A stretch of 64,000 nucleotides of DNA from Halostagnicola sp. A-GB9-2 (GTDB taxonomy: Archaea > Halobacteriota > Halobacteria > Halobacteriales > Natrialbaceae): positions 186,001 through 250,000 of the forward strand of contig NZ_JASJOC010000003.1 in the NCBI RefSeq assembly GCF_030068615.1, given 5' to 3'. Shown here one piece after another: positions 12,979 to 20,931 of this stretch. Position 1 is the stretch's first letter, and the number at the start of each line of letters is the position of its first letter. The notes beneath the pieces were generated by a model, which was not told where the DNA came from, did no database searches, and saw only the letters and a list, made by a program, of their open reading frames with translations. Both the position numbers and the translations under genes were made by a program.

Positions 12979-13132
12979 GCAGATGTGTTATGCGTGAACA
13001 CTATAATGTGTATCGGAGCCGGATTGTTCCAACGCCGAACGTAATGGCTTCAGTTTATCCTCGAGTTGATGGATCGTGGACATCAACCCGGCAGATATAT
13101 TTCAACCGGAGACAGTCCGTCGTGCTTGCGTT

Positions 13133-13141
13133 TAAATACGA
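13133..13141 (+). promoter_or_regulatory. TATA box of the helicase-nuclease operon
   Basis: GTTTAAATAC is centred about 35 bases upstream of the ATG at 13172. It is the clearest TATA-like site in the gap and supports a single transcript for the three genes that follow. Confidence 0.55.
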
Positions 13142-13171: not shown

Positions 13172-15517
13172 ATGGTCGGAACCACACCCACCCTCGAGGG
13201 AACGCTCGCAGTCTTGCCGACGCTTTCCAGCGACCTCCTCGAGCTCGTCGCAACCGAGTACGATGCCCTCTGTCGGGAACACGGGTCGGGCAACGTCCTC
13301 GTCTTGAAGCGCCATCCGACCGGACTCGACCGTGTTCGCGAGGCGCTCGCCCGCGAGCGCACGACCGCGGCCAACGGAAGGAGTGCGGACGAGAACAGTG
13401 CAGGCGAAAACCCCGTGACTACCGGTCCCCGGTCGCCGCGTCTGGAGTCGCTTCCCGAGCACGCCTCGAAGGTCCTCGAGGAGTACGATCCGATGCTCGA
13501 CCGCCTCGAGTACGAAGAGCGGATCGAACTCATCTCGCTGGTTATCGACGGTGCGAGCCGGGACGTGCCGCCGTATCTCGAGCGGGCGGCCGACCACGAG
13601 AGCTTCGGCCGCGACGTCGGACAGCTGTTGCTCGAGGCGACGCGACAGCGGATCCGCCTCCGCCGCGACGAAGCTGATTCCGCCCGTTCCGATACGCAGA
13701 TCCCACCCGAGGAGCTCCACGACTGCCTCGAGTTCCTCTACGCGATGAACGACCGGTTCCACGAGGAACTCGACGCTCGGGGATACGTCGAACGTGCCGA
13801 CGTTGTCCCGAAGGCGGTCGACCTTCTCGAGGAGAACCGAGACGGCGTCCGCACCCGCATCACCTCGTCGTTCGACGCCGTGCTCGCGCTCGAATTCGAG
13901 GAGTTTCGCCATCTCGACCGACGGTACCTCGCCGCGCTCTCCCAGGACGCGACGCTCGTCTGTCTCGGCGAACCGCACGCGAGCACCGAGCGAACGCGGG
14001 TCGAACCCGGATCGCTCGAGGAAATCGCCGACGGGCTCGAGGTCGAATCCGTTTCCGAGCGACGAGCGACCGCCCCTGACGGTGAGCCAGATACCACTTC
14101 CAACGCCCGTCCCCCACACCGCCCGATCACGAAATTTCTCGCAACGGGACGAACGGCTGGATCGGACGAGACACGAACCGAACCAGGGACCGCTCGACGC
14201 ATCCGGGCTCGAACGCGTCGCGAGCAAGTCGATGCGGTCGCGACCGAGATCCAGTCGATCCGTGACCGACGGGACTCCCTTCGATACGACGACATCGCGG
14301 TCGCCGTCCCTCGAGTCGAACAGGTGCCCGAAACCCGAACGCGGCTTCGAGATGCCGCCATCCCGACGGCGACGATCGGCGTCCCTTCGCTCGCGGAGGA
14401 TCCGGCGGTCAACGAACTCTACGCCTTCGTCACGCTCCAGTGTGCTCGTGAGGACGGGATACTCCCCGCAGATTTTGGTGAATCAGAGCTACCGCAGACC
14501 CGTCGTGACACTCGTCGAAACGAAACACGAACCGTCGCATACGATCGCCTTGAGGCCCGCGTCGACGGATTTTCCTCGGACCTTCTTGAGGAGTGTGCCG
14601 GCGCGAGCGTCTCGAGATCGGTCGAGCGCTGGATCGTCCGAACGAACTTGAAAGGTCGAATCTCGAACAAGGAGGAGTGGGTCGACGCCAGAGAACAGTT
14701 CGAAGGTATCCAGCGGGTGCTCGAAATCGCTCGTTTCGTCGAGGAGACCGACCTCGTCGGCCCCGACTGGGAGGGGCTTCGGCGGATGCTCGAGCGGACG
14801 ATCAGGTACGACGCACCCCACGTCCACGCGGTCGACACCCGCGCTCCGACGGGCGGGGTGACGGTCTGTGCGATCGATGAACTGGCGTACGATCCACACG
14901 CCGTCGTCTTCCTGCTCGACGTGACCGAAGCGAACTACCCCGGTGACCCCGCACTCACGCAGCTGTTTCCGACGGCTTGGCTCCGCGAAATGTCTTACTA
15001 CCCGGCCGTCACCGATCCCGACCCGCGGGAGCTCGAGCGAACCTTCGAGCCGGTTGCAGACGCGGAGTCCGTCACGAATCCTTTCGAGACCTATCACGCC
15101 CAGCGCGCTCGCAGACGATTGGCGATCGGCACACGAGCGGCGACTGAGCGTCTCTACTGCTGTTCGTACGAACGCGGCTCGGGCGGGCTCCGCCGGACGC
15201 ACGACGAATCCCGCTATCTGAAACTCCTCGAGCGGGAACCGAACTGTTCGCTCAAGGACGTCGACGTGACGGGCAGAGAGGCGGCGATCTACGGCGAGTC
15301 GAACGCACTCGAGGCGCTGCTCGACCAGCCCCGCGGTGAACTCACTCGCCTCCTGCGGGAGGCAAGCACGGGTGGCGACGCCGACCTCGCCGAGACCGAA
15401 GCGCTGTTCGAAGAGATCGCGCTCGTTCTCGCGGAAGGCGATATCGACGAGGAACTTGAGACCGCGGTCTACTCCCAGTTTGAGTTCGCCGCGGGGGAGG
15501 TGAGTCGCCGTGAGTGA
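13172..15517 (+). CDS. AddB/RecC-like subunit: SF1-helicase-like protein without Walker A
   Basis: The 781-residue protein lacks a P-loop and a DExx box. It retains features placed like those of an SF1 helicase remnant. Around residue 373 is YDDIAVAVPRVEQVPETRTR (compare the motif IV/2B region of UvrD and AddA). Near residue 564 is TVCAIDELAYDPHAVVFLLD then TEANYPGD (the motif V position of AddB), and near 646 is ARRRLAIGTRAATERLYCCS (motif VI position). This pattern is that of AddB and RecC, the inactive helicases that read Chi. The stop overlaps the next gene by 8 bases. Assignment rests on motif order and on the two genes behind it. Confidence 0.7.
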   Translation: MVGTTPTLEGTLAVLPTLSSDLLELVATEYDALCREHGSGNVLVLKRHPTGLDRVREALARERTTAANGRSADENSAGENPVTTGPRSPRLESLPEHASKVLEEYDPMLDRLEYEERIELISLVIDGASRDVPPYLERAADHESFGRDVGQLLLEATRQRIRLRRDEADSARSDTQIPPEELHDCLEFLYAMNDRFHEELDARGYVERADVVPKAVDLLEENRDGVRTRITSSFDAVLALEFEEFRHLDRRYLAALSQDATLVCLGEPHASTERTRVEPGSLEEIADGLEVESVSERRATAPDGEPDTTSNARPPHRPITKFLATGRTAGSDETRTEPGTARRIRARTRREQVDAVATEIQSIRDRRDSLRYDDIAVAVPRVEQVPETRTRLRDAAIPTATIGVPSLAEDPAVNELYAFVTLQCAREDGILPADFGESELPQTRRDTRRNETRTVAYDRLEARVDGFSSDLLEECAGASVSRSVERWIVRTNLKGRISNKEEWVDAREQFEGIQRVLEIARFVEETDLVGPDWEGLRRMLERTIRYDAPHVHAVDTRAPTGGVTVCAIDELAYDPHAVVFLLDVTEANYPGDPALTQLFPTAWLREMSYYPAVTDPDPRELERTFEPVADAESVTNPFETYHAQRARRRLAIGTRAATERLYCCSYERGSGGLRRTHDESRYLKLLEREPNCSLKDVDVTGREAAIYGESNALEALLDQPRGELTRLLREASTGGDADLAETEALFEEIALVLAEGDIDEELETAVYSQFEFAAGEVSRRE

Positions 15518-16553
15518 TCGACGGCTCTCGGTCGGCGCGATCGAGTCGTATCTCCGCTGTCCTCGCCGGTACGAGTTCGCCCATGTCCAGGAGTTACACA
15601 GCGACGAGGCCGACTCGCCGTCGACGGATCGAGTCGATCTGCTCCGACGAGCTATTTGCGACGGTCTCCGGACCGGCGAAACCGATCCGGACTCCCTCGA
15701 AAGCGCCGTCATCGAGCGCCTCTCGACGCTCTGGAGCGAGTACGACGAGCGGTTTCACTCGCGAGCGCAACGGGAGTTCGAACGTCGCGTACTCGACGCG
15801 ACCGCGCGGGCGTACGTCGATGCGGTCGGGGCGGCCCACGCGTCGGGACTCGCCAAGCTTCGAAACACGGGCAGGGCCGGAGAGCTGGTCGGTCCGGACC
15901 TCCCGCTGTCGTCGACGGTTTCCGTTTCGACATCGAGTTCGGCTCCGTCCGACGCCGACGATTCGCTTCGTTCCGTGGCTCTCGAGTCGGCCGTCGACTA
16001 CGTCTACGGTGAAGGTTCTTCACTCGTGGGCGTCCGCTTCGTTCCGACGATCGACTCGCTCGGGCTCCTCCGATACCGGTCCTCGTGGGAAGGAGACGTC
16101 GAAACGCTGTTCGCGGACCACTTCGACCCCGACGACTCGACCTTCGAACCCGGACCGGTCGGCGCGCTCCTCGAGACGGCCGTCGTCCTCGACGGACTCC
16201 GCGAACTGTGCGATCGACTCGGTCTCGAGGGCCGAACCTGCCGGTACCTCCTGATTCCGCTGGCCGACCGATCCCAGAACTCGGTCAACTGGGTCAGCGA
16301 AACCGTCGAGACGACTGTCGAGGGGATCGATCTGACCGACATCTTCATCGACCATCACACGTTCGGAATGACGCACGAACACCGAAACGGAACGATCGAG
16401 AACCGACTTGCAACCGTCGTCGAACAACTCGTTTCCGGATCATTCGACCCCTCGAGACAGTGGGACCAGATCGAATCCGAATCGTGCCCAGACTGTGGGT
16501 ACGCGGTCTGTTGTCCCGAGTACCTCTCTCAGGAGGTGCGTTTCGATGGATGA
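15510..16553 (+). CDS. PD-(D/E)XK-like protein with four cysteines, probably catalytically dead
   Basis: The 347-residue protein opens LSVGAIESYLRCPRRYEFAH, the typical start of a RecB/AddB-type nuclease domain with the first Fe-S cysteine. It ends with CPDCGYAVCC, matching the late cysteine cluster of AddB-like iron-staple nucleases. The expected active site is degenerate: the segment AVDYVYGEGSSLVGVRF stands where active enzymes have D...(D/E)xK, with R in place of K. It starts at GTG 15510 with GGGGGAGGTGA seven bases upstream and overlaps both neighbours by 8 bases. I infer that it and the preceding protein together equal one AddB subunit. Confidence 0.7.
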   Translation: MSDRRLSVGAIESYLRCPRRYEFAHVQELHSDEADSPSTDRVDLLRRAICDGLRTGETDPDSLESAVIERLSTLWSEYDERFHSRAQREFERRVLDATARAYVDAVGAAHASGLAKLRNTGRAGELVGPDLPLSSTVSVSTSSSAPSDADDSLRSVALESAVDYVYGEGSSLVGVRFVPTIDSLGLLRYRSSWEGDVETLFADHFDPDDSTFEPGPVGALLETAVVLDGLRELCDRLGLEGRTCRYLLIPLADRSQNSVNWVSETVETTVEGIDLTDIFIDHHTFGMTHEHRNGTIENRLATVVEQLVSGSFDPSRQWDQIESESCPDCGYAVCCPEYLSQEVRFDG

Positions 16554-19500
16554 GCCCCTCGAGCCGGAAATCGGTGATTTCGTCGGATCGGACGGATCAG
16601 ATTCCTCTGATCCGAACGATCCAGATCCGCTCGAGCCGAAGGGCAATCAGCGAGCCGTTATCGAAAGTCAGAGCGCGTCGACCTCCGTCGACGCGGGTGC
16701 TGGAACCGGCAAAACGACGACGATGCTCATGCGGATCGAACGCGCTATCGACCGCGGAGAGGTCGATCCCGAGAACGTGCTGGTGCTGACCTTCGCGAAC
16801 GAGGCCGCCTCGAGCATCCGCGAAGCCGTCACCGAACGGCTCGACCCCGAAGCCGCGGCGGCCATTGACGTCTACACCTACCACTCGTTCTGTTACCAGC
16901 TCGTCCGCGAGTACGCCTACTACCTCGGCCTCTCGCCGGACTTCGAAATCGTGACCGAACGCAAGCGACGGCGGATCGTCGGCCGGCTACTCGCCGAAAC
17001 GGAGTACGACTTCGCGGCGGCTCCCGCTCGCGGCGACGGCTCCCCAGAGGACCTCGCCGACGCCGTCGACTGGTTCATCGCGACGATGAGCCAGGAGAAC
17101 GTCGGTCCCGAAACCCTCGAGTCACAGCTCCCCGCGGTTCGCACGCTCGAGCTGTGTACCGAGTTCGTCCTCTGGCTCGAGGATCTCGCGACTGCCGAGT
17201 TTTCGTTCGACAACGAGGCGTTTCGGTTCTTCAACGATCCCGACCATCTCGAGGCTGCACGCGAATCGCTGATCGAGTACGGCAAGCTTGTCGGCTTCTG
17301 TCGCGAGAAAATCGCGGAAGCGCCGAGCGAGTTTCGAGCCGATTCTGTCGTTCGGACGATCGATCGATATCTCCGGGCGCTTCAGACGTGCGTGACCAAC
17401 ACGCTCGAGACGATCTCGCTCGAGGAGCCAACGACCAAACACCTTCCCCGGGCCCTGTTCGGAAACGAAATCTGGGGCGATTCGACGGGTCGACTCGAGC
17501 AGACGCCGTTCGGTCGGTTGAAACACTACGTCGAGTTCCTACGGCTCGCTCGACACTATACCGATGTCTACGCGGATTACCGAGAGACCTTGGCGAACGA
17601 GCACGCCGTCGACTTCGACGAACTCGTTCGAACGGCGACCGGACTACTTACCGACGAAGACGACTCGCGGCCGCCCGAGGGCGAGGCCGGAACGAACTCC
17701 GTCGCCGACGAAATCGCGGGTCGCTGGGAACACGTCTACTGCGACGAGTTCCAGGATACCGACGAGACGCAGTTCAGACTCATTCGGTCGCTTACTTCAG
17801 GAACGGATCGTCCCGACCTGCTCGCCATCGGCGACAAGGATCAGGCGATCTACGGCTGGCGCGGCACCGATCGGAAGGGCCTCGATCGACTCGCCGACAC
17901 CGACGACGATCACGAGTCGATCGAACTCGAGTTGAACTTTCGCTCGCGCCAGGAGATCCTCGATCTGACGAACCACTGTTCGTACGGCCCGCAGTCCTCG
18001 AAGACGCTCCGGGAGAACGACCGAACGATCGGTGAGTATGACGAGCCCGACCCGCCCCACCGGGTCCTGAAGGTCGAAAGCGATAAACTCCCCTGGTCGC
18101 CATCCGAACAGGTCGGTGCGGCGGTTTCCCGACTGCTCAACGGGCAGTTCGAGAACGTTCCGCAGCGCTCGCTCGAGGACGTCGCGATCATCGTTCGAAC
18201 GAACCGGCAGGCACAGGCTGTCGCCGACGAACTCGAGAACCTCCGGATCCCCTACGAGGTTTCCGGGTCGCCGCGAGGCGATATTTCACCCGGTATCCGG
18301 ACGGTCCTCTCGTATCTCCGCGTGCTGGTCGATCCGGATGCTGATGCCCATCTCCGGCGCGTGTTGCTCTACCGATATCGAATCCCCGAATCGGACCTCG
18401 AGACGCTCGCTCGCCGCAATGACTCGCTGTACGAGGCGTTGTTCGACCTCGAGTTCTCTGATAACGGTGACACCGACGGCGATCAGGGATCGGTCGACGC
18501 CCTCGACCGACTCGAGCGGGCCCGCGATCACCTCGGCGCGCTCGAGTCCATTCAGGACGTCTATCCCCTCTCGGAGTTCGTCCGTCGCTTCCGAGAGCGG
18601 ACGAACCTCGAGTGGTTCCTGACCGCCGACGAGCGGACGGAACTCGAGCGGATCGATCGGTTCGTCGAGGCGTACAACGGGGACTCGGTGCTGGACCGGC
18701 TCACGCCGCGGTTCGTCGACGCACTCGAGCGAACGCTCCGCGGGAGCGAGTCGTCGTTCAGTCGCGGATCGCGATCGACGGATAGCGTCGACGTGATGAC
18801 GGTCCACCAGGCGAAGGGACTCCAGTTCGATACCGTTCTCGTCCCCTTCCTCTCGGATGAGGAGTGGTGCGTCGACGGCGATTACGCTCGCCGAGATCGG
18901 TACCGGCTCCTCGAGGCGACGCTTGATGACGAAATCGACTCACCCCTGCTCGAGAACCTCGCGGCCGACCCGCTCGGCGAGGAGTGGCGCGTGTTACATG
19001 TCGCGCTCACTCGAGCCGAAAACCACCTGTTCGTGTTCGGATCGGCCTACGAGTATGACGGCGACGAGACGCAGTTGTCCGTTTCCACGGCTGAGGGCTG
19101 TCTCGCCGAGGAAATCGAGTGGTCCGTCGCGGGGAAACGAATGGACCTCTGGACGACGGTGACCGAGAGCTTCGAAACCGTTCGCGAGCAGTATCCGGAG
19201 ACTGTCGTCGACTGTACCGAGACGCTTGGGTCCACCACACGGACGAATCCGGGAACGATCATCTACTACCAGGATTACGACGACCGGCGGATCGAACCGC
19301 TCGAGACGCGACAGGCCATCGAGACGGTTCACCAGCTTGGTCGACTACTTCGCGGAAACCGATTGCTTCCGGCCGCCGACGCCTCGAGTGTGCCCGGACT
19401 CGAGGACCGGTTCGACGTTCCGACGGATCGACAGGCGAGCGCGCTGACGACGGAGACGGTTCGGTTTCCCGTCGAGACGCTCTCGACCGTCTCCGAACTC

Positions 19501-20361
19501 GAGGCGACGATCCGACACAGTTACAGCGCGCTCGAAACCCACGAGACGTGTCCGCGAAAGCACTACCTCGATCACGTCGTTCGGGCGTTCGACGATCCCG
19601 ACCGAACGCTCGCTCGAGACCTCGAAGCGTCGCCGACCGACTCGAGTTCGTCGGCGATGGACGGACGGGAACACGGCCGTCTCGTCGGCTCTCTCTTCCA
19701 CGATGTCGCCGAGGAGGCGTTCCACCGCGGCTACGACACCGAGGACGCCTGGCGAGATGCGGCTATCAGACAGCTGACCGCCCGAAACGTTCCGGAGCAC
19801 CGCGAGGCCGTTCTCGCCTGCATCGAGCGGTATTTCGAGGCCGAGTCGCCCGACTTCGACGACCCCGTCGCCGACTGGGAGCCCGTCGCGGCCGAACTCC
19901 CGTTCGTCCTCGAGAACGTTGCGGGCGTATCGGGTGATGTCGTTGGCTACGCCGATTCGGTGCGGCGAACGCCTACAGGAGAGCTGGTCGTCCTCGATTA
20001 CAAGGCAACGGCCGAGCGGATCGATCCCGACGACGCCGTTCAACTATCGTTGTACGCTCGAGCGTGCGAGCAGGTGTTCGAGGACCCGATCGCCGCAGTG
20101 GGTTACGTATACGTCGGTGACGTCGACGGGCCGCGGGTGGATCTTATCGATCCAGACGAACTTCCCGCGTGGTCGACTGTTCGAGGATCGCTCGAGTCCG
20201 TTGACGAGCCGGCGTTTACCGAAACGACGCCGGGCTCTCACTGTCGATTCTGCGCGCACCGCTCGCTGGGCTGTGGTCCCGACGAGTACGGGCTCGAGGG
20301 GGTAGACGAACCCGAAGAAGTCGGCTCGCTCGAAGTAGACGGCGGCAGTATCCCAGAGTGA
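16546..20361 (+). CDS. UvrD/AddA-like ATP-dependent helicase-nuclease with Fe-S cysteines
   Basis: The 1271-residue protein carries a complete SF1A helicase: DAGAGTGKTT (Walker A, residues 49-58), VLTFANEAASSI (Ia), YCDEFQDTDE (II, about 398), GDKDQAIYGWRG (III), ELNFRSRQEIL (IV), TVHQAKGLQFD (V, about 750) and VALTRAENHLF (VI, about 820). The C-terminal nuclease has CPRKHYLDH (about 1002), LVGSLFHDVAEEAF, GYAD...VVLDYKA (D-x-K, about 1134-1151), QLSLYA and CRFCAHRSLGC (about 1233-1242). The four cysteines fit an iron-staple cluster. ATG 16546 is preceded by AGGAGGTG. It should unwind and resect double-strand ends. Confidence 0.9.
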   Translation: MDEPLEPEIGDFVGSDGSDSSDPNDPDPLEPKGNQRAVIESQSASTSVDAGAGTGKTTTMLMRIERAIDRGEVDPENVLVLTFANEAASSIREAVTERLDPEAAAAIDVYTYHSFCYQLVREYAYYLGLSPDFEIVTERKRRRIVGRLLAETEYDFAAAPARGDGSPEDLADAVDWFIATMSQENVGPETLESQLPAVRTLELCTEFVLWLEDLATAEFSFDNEAFRFFNDPDHLEAARESLIEYGKLVGFCREKIAEAPSEFRADSVVRTIDRYLRALQTCVTNTLETISLEEPTTKHLPRALFGNEIWGDSTGRLEQTPFGRLKHYVEFLRLARHYTDVYADYRETLANEHAVDFDELVRTATGLLTDEDDSRPPEGEAGTNSVADEIAGRWEHVYCDEFQDTDETQFRLIRSLTSGTDRPDLLAIGDKDQAIYGWRGTDRKGLDRLADTDDDHESIELELNFRSRQEILDLTNHCSYGPQSSKTLRENDRTIGEYDEPDPPHRVLKVESDKLPWSPSEQVGAAVSRLLNGQFENVPQRSLEDVAIIVRTNRQAQAVADELENLRIPYEVSGSPRGDISPGIRTVLSYLRVLVDPDADAHLRRVLLYRYRIPESDLETLARRNDSLYEALFDLEFSDNGDTDGDQGSVDALDRLERARDHLGALESIQDVYPLSEFVRRFRERTNLEWFLTADERTELERIDRFVEAYNGDSVLDRLTPRFVDALERTLRGSESSFSRGSRSTDSVDVMTVHQAKGLQFDTVLVPFLSDEEWCVDGDYARRDRYRLLEATLDDEIDSPLLENLAADPLGEEWRVLHVALTRAENHLFVFGSAYEYDGDETQLSVSTAEGCLAEEIEWSVAGKRMDLWTTVTESFETVREQYPETVVDCTETLGSTTRTNPGTIIYYQDYDDRRIEPLETRQAIETVHQLGRLLRGNRLLPAADASSVPGLEDRFDVPTDRQASALTTETVRFPVETLSTVSELEATIRHSYSALETHETCPRKHYLDHVVRAFDDPDRTLARDLEASPTDSSSSAMDGREHGRLVGSLFHDVAEEAFHRGYDTEDAWRDAAIRQLTARNVPEHREAVLACIERYFEAESPDFDDPVADWEPVAAELPFVLENVAGVSGDVVGYADSVRRTPTGELVVLDYKATAERIDPDDAVQLSLYARACEQVFEDPIAAVGYVYVGDVDGPRVDLIDPDELPAWSTVRGSLESVDEPAFTETTPGSHCRFCAHRSLGCGPDEYGLEGVDEPEEVGSLEVDGGSIPE

Positions 20362-20442: not shown

Positions 20443-20931
20443 ATGATCGAAGCGACGCTCTGTTTTGTCGTTCGCGACGGCTGTGTACTACTGATCGAGA
20501 AACGCCGCGGACTCGGCGAAGGACTGTACAACGGCCCCGGCGGAAAACTCGAGGATGGCGAAACGCCTCGGGCGTGTGCGATTCGGGAAACGCGCGAGGA
20601 GGTGGGTATCGAGGTGTCGGAGCCGGAGAAGGCAGGAACACTCGAGTTCGTTCTCGACGGATCTCTCCACACGAAGTGTCACGTTTTTCGGACGGATTCG
20701 TTCGACGGCGAACCGACGATGACTGCGGAGGCGCGACCGGAGTGGTTCGCTATCGACGACGTTCCCTACGACAGGATGTGGGAGGACGACCGATACTGGC
20801 TTCCCGGCGTTCTCGAGGGGAAAACGGTCGCGGGACAGTTCCGCTTTGCGGGCGGTGAACCGCTGGACGAGGCCGAGTTTGTTGACTACGATCTCGAGTG
20901 GTCCGTCTCGTTCCCGGGAACGCACCGATGA
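20443..20931 (+). CDS. Nudix hydrolase, MutT/MTH1-like
   Basis: The 162-residue protein has the full Nudix box GKLEDGETPRACAIRETREE plus VGIE (G-x5-E-x7-REUxEExGU). It starts MIEATLCFVVRDGCVLLIEKRRGLGEGLYNGPG, very like MTH1-type 8-oxo-dGTP diphosphatases that clean oxidised nucleotides. It lies 81 bases after the helicase-nuclease gene on the same strand and may be co-transcribed, which would fit a DNA-protection role. An in-frame ATG at 20419 would add 8 residues; the chosen start begins directly at the fold. Confidence 0.88.
   Translation: MIEATLCFVVRDGCVLLIEKRRGLGEGLYNGPGGKLEDGETPRACAIRETREEVGIEVSEPEKAGTLEFVLDGSLHTKCHVFRTDSFDGEPTMTAEARPEWFAIDDVPYDRMWEDDRYWLPGVLEGKTVAGQFRFAGGEPLDEAEFVDYDLEWSVSFPGTHR

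What the first reader, a model, noticed from the sequence alone, without database searches (positions are those of the whole stretch)
13172..20361. Three-gene AddAB/RecBCD-like helicase-nuclease operon with the AddB equivalent split in two
Seen: three genes overlap by 8 bases each, with strong Shine-Dalgarno sequences before the second and third and one TATA box in front. Gene 3 has all SF1A helicase motifs plus a C-terminal nuclease with D-x-K and four cysteines. Gene 1 is helicase-like without Walker A. Gene 2 is nuclease-like with the cysteines only. Known: bacterial AddAB pairs one active helicase-nuclease with one Walker-poor, Fe-S-nuclease AddB, and archaea usually resect ends with HerA-NurA and Mre11-Rad50. 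Inference: this is a haloarchaeal end-resection or anti-invader complex equivalent to AddAB, with AddB encoded as two proteins.
Basis: partly seen in the sequence, partly recalled or inferred. Interest (0 to 1): 0.78.

Follow-up and report, generated by a model that had tools for sequence, protein, structure and literature searches.

The report
Archaeal AddAB-like nuclease with split subunit
Three overlapping genes in a salt-loving archaeon encode what looks like a relative of the bacterial AddAB machine that unwinds and chews broken DNA, with one subunit made as two separate proteins; the set is inherited together across many haloarchaea and, in one branch, sits on plasmids beside antiviral genes.

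Summary
Three complete genes (781, 347 and 1271 aa) overlap by 8 bases each, with Shine-Dalgarno sites and an upstream TATA box. They are always found together: 54 of 145 haloarchaeal genomes carry all three, and no intact copy occurs alone.

The 'split AddB' reading holds by homology. Gene 1's best PDB match is AddB (E 9e-9), and it is sister to archaeal AddB in a tree (99/99). Gene 2's top five Foldseek hits are AddB chains. Genes 1 and 2 tile single-chain archaeal AddB (13-573, then 706-1025). Unsplit two-gene AddB-AddA operons occur in methanogen relatives and in haloarchaea, including this very genome.

Corrections: gene 3 is a clade outside AddA, with a predicted Fe-S site that haloarchaeal AddA lacks, so this is a sister lineage of AddAB rather than AddAB itself. 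In the window's lineage gene 2 has lost its nuclease D-x-K motif but kept four invariant cysteines. A second lineage, often on plasmids, keeps both nucleases and usually lies among BREX, restriction-modification or Argonaute genes. NurA is in 144 of 145 genomes, so this does not replace HerA-NurA.

Complex formation, activity and biological role are inferred, not shown.

The parts
13131..13138 (+). TATA-box-like element TTTAAATA, 41 bases before the gene 1 start codon
   Evidence: read directly; promoter function inferred
13172..15517 (+). gene 1: AddB-like inactivated SF1A helicase-fold subunit, 781 aa, no Walker A
   Evidence: profile vs PDB best hit AddB 3u44_B E 9e-9; hhalign vs AddB E 6e-19; sister to archaeal AddB 99/99
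15496..15503 (+). Shine-Dalgarno GGAGGTGA of gene 2
   Evidence: read directly
15510..16553 (+). gene 2: AddB C-terminal nuclease-fold subunit with four Fe-S-type cysteines, catalytic D-x-K lost, 347 aa
   Evidence: Foldseek top five = AddB chains; Pfam PDDEXK_1; hhalign vs AddB residues 706-1025 E 1.5e-13
15558..15560 (+). gene 2 Cys17 (first predicted Fe-S ligand)
   Evidence: invariant in 41/41 and 76/76 named loci
16026..16052 (+). gene 2 residues 173-181 (VGVRFVPTI), the position of D-x-K in homologues
   Evidence: DYK in the second lineage; lost in the window's lineage
16485..16514 (+). gene 2 Cys326-x2-Cys329-x5-Cys335 (remaining predicted Fe-S ligands)
   Evidence: invariant
16532..16538 (+). 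Shine-Dalgarno GGAGGTG of gene 3
   Evidence: read directly
16546..20361 (+). gene 3: SF1A helicase with intact motifs fused to Fe-S-type PD-(D/E)XK nuclease, 1271 aa
   Evidence: Pfam, conserved motifs, tree
16693..16716 (+). gene 3 Walker A, residues 50-57 (AGAGTGKT)
   Evidence: read directly; K56 invariant
19549..19551 (+). gene 3 Cys1002 (first predicted Fe-S ligand)
   Evidence: conserved
19954..20004 (+). gene 3 nuclease catalytic residues D1137 ... D1151-Y-K1153
   Evidence: conserved
20242..20274 (+). gene 3 Cys1233-x2-Cys1236-x6-Cys1243 (remaining predicted Fe-S ligands)
   Evidence: conserved

Best explanation
The operon encodes a three-subunit helicase-nuclease that works like AddAB/RecBCD. 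Shown by sequence: gene 3 is a motor with intact SF1A motifs and an intact C-terminal nuclease; genes 1 and 2 together cover AddB, gene 1 its inactivated helicase fold and gene 2 its Fe-S nuclease fold; genes 1 and 3 each form a clade separate from the AddAB subunits, gene 1 as sister of archaeal AddB. Inferred: the three proteins form one complex that loads on double-stranded DNA ends, helped by the Fe-S module of gene 2. Gene 3 translocates 3'->5' and unwinds, and the gene 1 channel scans or guides one strand. In the window's lineage only gene 3 would cut, as in RecBCD, where RecB has the single nuclease; in the other lineage gene 2 keeps its catalytic residues, so two nucleases could cut, as in AddAB. 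The products would be 3' single strands for RadA, or complete degradation of foreign linear DNA such as restriction fragments. DNA-end processing is the likely activity; whether its main use is repair (more likely for the chromosomal lineage of the window) or destruction of invaders (more likely for the plasmid-linked lineage) is open.
For: Gene 1 profile: best PDB match AddB, E 9e-9, co-linear; 18 of 37 members hit the addB model; hhalign best vs AddB, E 6e-19; sister to archaeal AddB, 99/99. Gene 2: Foldseek top five are AddB chains; aligns to AddB 706-1025, E 1.5e-13. Unsplit AddB-AddA operons in other classes of the phylum, in haloarchaea and in this genome. Strict co-occurrence and order. 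Invariant cysteines and gene 3 active sites. D-x-K of gene 2 missing in one clade only. Chromosomal synteny with a CBS-domain gene in 38 of 45 loci of the window's lineage; defence-type neighbours of the other lineage.
Against: No experiment shows a complex, unwinding or cleavage. Gene 1's Foldseek ranking does not separate AddB (2e-18) from UvrD/PcrA (1.6e-19). Gene 2's profile matches UvrD-Cas4 nucleases almost as well as AddB (2e-13 vs 1.5e-13). Grouping of gene 1 with AddB could partly reflect long branches of degenerate helicases. Gene 3 is not inside AddA.
Confidence: 0.72

Rival explanations
1. The split pair is not a cut AddB: genes 1 and 2 arose by duplication and decay of a UvrD-Cas4-type helicase-nuclease like gene 3, as may have happened for AdnAB, and resemble AddB by convergence.
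For: Gene 3 aligns best to the UvrD-Cas4 profile and gene 2 matches UvrD-Cas4 nucleases as well as AddB; single-sequence comparisons of gene 2 favour UvrD-Cas4; gene 3 has Fe-S-type cysteines as UvrD-Cas4 does.
Against: Gene 1 is sister to archaeal AddB at 99/99, away from gene 3, UvrD-Cas4 and AdnA; its profile scores 168 vs AddB against 122 vs UvrD-Cas4; AddB is its best PDB hit.
Confidence: 0.2
2. It is primarily an anti-invader system: the complex degrades viral or plasmid DNA, often after a neighbouring restriction, BREX or Argonaute system has acted on it, and has no regular role in repair.
For: In one lineage the operon sits on 16 plasmid records, and 8 of 12 annotated plasmid loci lie within about 12 kb of BREX-5, restriction-modification, Piwi or SIR2 genes; five control stretches of the same plasmids held no complete such system.
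Against: In the window's lineage the operon is in nearly all genomes of the family and flanked by ordinary conserved genes; the control set is small and was judged by eye; no PADLOC model fits genes 1 and 2.
Confidence: 0.35
3. Gene 3 acts alone as a UvrD-Cas4-type helicase-nuclease and genes 1 and 2 are only regulators or remnants.
For: Gene 3 has every catalytic motif; gene 1 lacks a P-loop and gene 2 lacks D-x-K in the window's lineage.
Against: All three are kept together in the 76 named loci where they could be read, and the gene 2 cysteines never vary; gene 3 is a separate clade from UvrD-Cas4; in the other lineage gene 2 keeps its own active site.
Confidence: 0.08

Closest known systems
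Bacterial and archaeal AddAB (two-gene AddB-AddA)
   Same: Gene order (AddB part first), motor-nuclease plus inactivated-helicase/Fe-S-nuclease composition, genes 1 and 2 homologous to AddB
   Different: AddB equivalent is split into two genes; motor lies outside the AddA clade; motor has its own Fe-S-type cysteines; gene 2 nuclease motif lost in the window's lineage
RecBCD
   Same: Three subunits; in the window's lineage only the motor-nuclease subunit is predicted to cut, as RecB does
   Different: No RecD-type second motor in the operon; genes 1 and 2 show no significant match to E. coli RecC
AdnAB of actinobacteria
   Same: Motor-nuclease paired with a helicase-like/Fe-S nuclease partner; AdnB is the weakly supported nearest neighbour of gene 3 (88/70)
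   Different: AdnA keeps a Walker A and is one chain; the gene 1 HMM does not hit Nocardia AdnA at E <= 10
UvrD-Cas4 fusions (PMC5704561)
   Same: Gene 3 has the same domain plan: UvrD helicase plus Fe-S Cas4-like nuclease
   Different: Those are single genes without the two partners; gene 3 forms a separate clade and is found with genes 1 and 2

Membership tests
AddAB | Motor subunit: SF1A helicase fused to C-terminal PD-(D/E)XK nuclease with intact motifs | tested here: met
AddAB | Motor subunit branches within the AddA clade | tested here: not met
   AddA (with RecB) is a clade without gene 3 (97, starred); AddA alone 100/100
AddAB | Partner with inactivated helicase fold homologous to AddB | tested here: met
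AddAB | Partner is one polypeptide carrying helicase fold and nuclease | tested here: not met
   separate genes in all 76 readable named loci, none fused
AddAB | AddB nuclease domain with four Fe-S cysteines | tested here: met
   C17, C326, C329, C335 invariant; the cluster itself is not shown
AddAB | AddB nuclease catalytically intact (D-x-K) | tested here: not met
   absent in the window's lineage; present in the second lineage
AddAB | Motor subunit without Fe-S cysteines | tested here: not met
   gene 3 C1002, C1233, C1236, C1243 conserved; the four canonical haloarchaeal AddA C-termini read lack them, though one methanogen AddA (L198) has a similar set, so the feature is not strict
AddAB | Chi-regulated end resection by a stable complex | not testable with these tools
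   needs purified proteins
RecBCD | RecD SF1B motor and RecC homologue | tested here: not met
   no such gene in the operon; no significant match of genes 1 and 2 to a single RecC sequence
AdnAB | Partner AdnA-like with Walker A | tested here: not met
   no P-loop in gene 1; gene 1 HMM does not hit AdnA
UvrD-Cas4 fusion | Gene 3 in the UvrD-Cas4 clade, encoded alone | tested here: not met
   separate starred clades; intact gene 3 never found without partners

The most novel reading that the evidence does not exclude
A previously undescribed class of AddAB/RecBCD-type enzymes, found only in haloarchaea in these searches, with a split AddB equivalent and Fe-S sites predicted in both nuclease modules; within it one branch lost one of its two nucleases while keeping the Fe-S module, a natural parallel to the step from AddAB-like to RecBCD-like enzymes.
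Probability: 0.55. Interest if true: 0.72.

Novelty: new variant of a known kind. Interest (0 to 1): 0.6.

Why it matters
How haloarchaea process broken DNA ends is usually told through Mre11-Rad50 (and, in other archaea, HerA-NurA). This adds another widespread helicase-nuclease that can be tested genetically in cultured strains. The two lineages, one with a single predicted active nuclease and one with two, give a natural comparison for how AddAB-like and RecBCD-like enzymes differ, and the plasmid-linked lineage ties such enzymes to archaeal antiviral islands.

Tried and rejected
HerA-NurA replacement: rejected, NurA is in 144 of 145 genomes. Mutual exclusion with canonical AddAB: rejected, 10 genomes have both, Fisher p 0.32. 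Known defence system: PADLOC gave only generic helicase hits for gene 3, one weak hit for gene 2 and none for gene 1. Viral origin of gene 1: one scan of viral contigs found no relative. A gene 1-gene 2 fusion in haloarchaea: none found. PDB sequence search with the gene 2 profile: uninformative. Gene 1 Foldseek: confirms an SF1A fold but does not discriminate between families. Searching Nonomuraea for AdnAB: record too large; Nocardia used instead, for the AdnA and AdnB sequences only. Literature searches in the open-access library found no description of a split archaeal AddB, which does not exclude one in papers not held.
Full report
Observation. The three genes lie at 13172-15517, 15510-16553 and 16546-20361 on the + strand, overlapping by 8 bases each. 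Strong Shine-Dalgarno sequences precede genes 2 and 3 and TTTAAATA lies 41 bases before gene 1. Pfam finds nothing in gene 1, the N-terminal part of PDDEXK_1 in gene 2 (2e-7), and UvrD helicase domains plus a full PDDEXK_1 in gene 3. NCBIfam hits to gene 3 (PcrA, Rep, AddA, RecB) are all far below their cut-offs.

Distribution. In a draw of 145 haloarchaeal genomes, gene 1 was found in 55, gene 2 in 53 and gene 3 in 55. Combining these with locus reading, 54 genomes carry all three; the exceptions are fragments with stops (G065 gene 1, G099 gene 3), and G003 has a truncated gene 3. Of 37 genomes in the window's family, 33 have the set, against 21 of 108 others. A scan of named genomes returned 78 loci, all haloarchaeal, the nearest being Halostagnicola sp. 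A56 (76%); that scan depends on three peptide patterns, so more distant relatives could be missed. The three genes are present in order, unfused, in all 76 of these loci where they could be read.

Two lineages. The window belongs to a lineage centred on Natrialbaceae, with a CBS-domain gene within 8 kb in 38 of 45 loci and a NUDIX gene in 22. A second lineage is sporadic across families, shares none of those neighbours and occurs on 16 plasmid records. In 8 of 12 annotated plasmid loci there are BREX-5, restriction-modification, Piwi or SIR2 genes within about 12 kb, while five control stretches from the same plasmids held solitary methylases or a DUF262 gene at most, apart from a ThiF/E2-type pair in one. 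That comparison is small and was judged by eye from annotation. In a Natrinema zhouii plasmid the operon closely follows a metallophosphoesterase/SMC-like ATPase pair resembling Mre11-Rad50.

Active sites. In gene 2, C17, C326, C329, C335, H110 and D163 are invariant, but the D-x-K is present only in the second lineage (DYK) and is missing in the window's lineage and its near relatives. On the gene 3 tree the loci without D-x-K form one clade, consistent with a single loss. Gene 3 keeps Walker A, DEFQDTD, D1137/D1151/K1153 and four cysteines. The Fe-S clusters themselves are inferred from the cysteine pattern.

Genes 1 and 2 as AddB. The gene 1 profile hits B. subtilis AddB first among PDB sequences (E 9e-9, residues 63-349 to 56-369), and 18 of 37 members hit the addB_Gpos model. 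Profile comparison gives AddB E 6e-19 (score 168), UvrD-Cas4 6e-14 (122), gene 3 1e-10 and UvrD 2e-7. Gene 2 gives AddB 1.5e-13 and UvrD-Cas4 2e-13, and almost nothing for AddA. The AlphaFold model of gene 2 (pLDDT 84.6) has AddB chains as its five best PDB matches, with modest E-values (9e-4 and weaker) but probability 1.0. The gene 1 model (pLDDT 80.4) is an SF1A fold, but Foldseek does not rank AddB above UvrD. In a joint tree gene 1 is sister to archaeal AddB (99/99) and separate from gene 3, AddA, UvrD-Cas4 and AdnA; long branches are a caveat.

Unsplit relatives. Haloarchaea have it too, for example Halobacterium salinarum plasmid PHS3 and 34 of 145 genomes at E < 1e-50, including the window's own genome (G000 contig C9). 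So split and unsplit systems coexist, and their occurrence is statistically independent (p 0.32).

Gene 3. It forms one clade outside AddA/RecB and outside UvrD-Cas4; with AdnB added, AdnB is its neighbour at weak support (88/70) on a long branch. The canonical haloarchaeal AddA C-termini read here lack the cysteine set that gene 3 has, although one methanogen AddA has a similar set.

Background from papers. AddB and RecC use inactivated helicase domains to recognise Chi; the AddB nuclease cuts the 5' strand while the 3' strand engages the AddA nuclease (PMC4824097). UvrD-Cas4 fusions of bacteria and mesophilic archaea were linked to defence contexts (PMC5704561). No paper found describes the present system.

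Verdict. A real, conserved three-gene helicase-nuclease set, a sister lineage of AddAB with its AddB equivalent in two proteins. The mechanism is inferred from homology; complex formation and role need experiments.

Noticed in passing
G000 contig C9 50000-66000 (L266 3707-7348 and 7344-10529): The window's own genome also carries an ordinary two-gene AddB-AddA operon, 80% identical in AddB to Halobacterium salinarum plasmid PHS3.
   Followed up: partly
L202, L203, L208-L211 (10034-11740 and 18375-19502 in most): Six plasmid operons of the second lineage share a divergent AAA-family ATPase upstream (DUF4143 in the one scanned); most also share a convergent gene without a Pfam hit (about 375 aa) downstream.
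   Followed up: partly
L205 7275-11520; L214 1-4182; L212 10759-11682: Mre11-like metallophosphoesterase genes, twice paired with a Rad50/SMC-like ATPase, sit next to split or canonical AddAB operons on haloarchaeal plasmids.
   Followed up: partly
control genomes: PF09376 (NurA) matches Haloferax volcanii above the curated cut-off, while a review states that HerA and NurA are absent there (PMC7776575).
   Followed up: no
G065 C3 306924-307844; G099 C2 113202-113990; G003 C2 246910-248265: Decayed remnants of the operon: gene 1 fragment with a stop, gene 3 fragment with a stop, and a truncated gene 3.
   Followed up: no
L200 7650-10703: A solo UvrD-Cas4-type fusion in a non-haloarchaeal relative, near a type I restriction R-like gene and an OLD-like ATPase gene.
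   Followed up: no
window 20443-20931: A NUDIX hydrolase gene follows gene 3 by about 80 bases and has a relative nearby in 22 of 45 loci of the lineage.
   Followed up: partly
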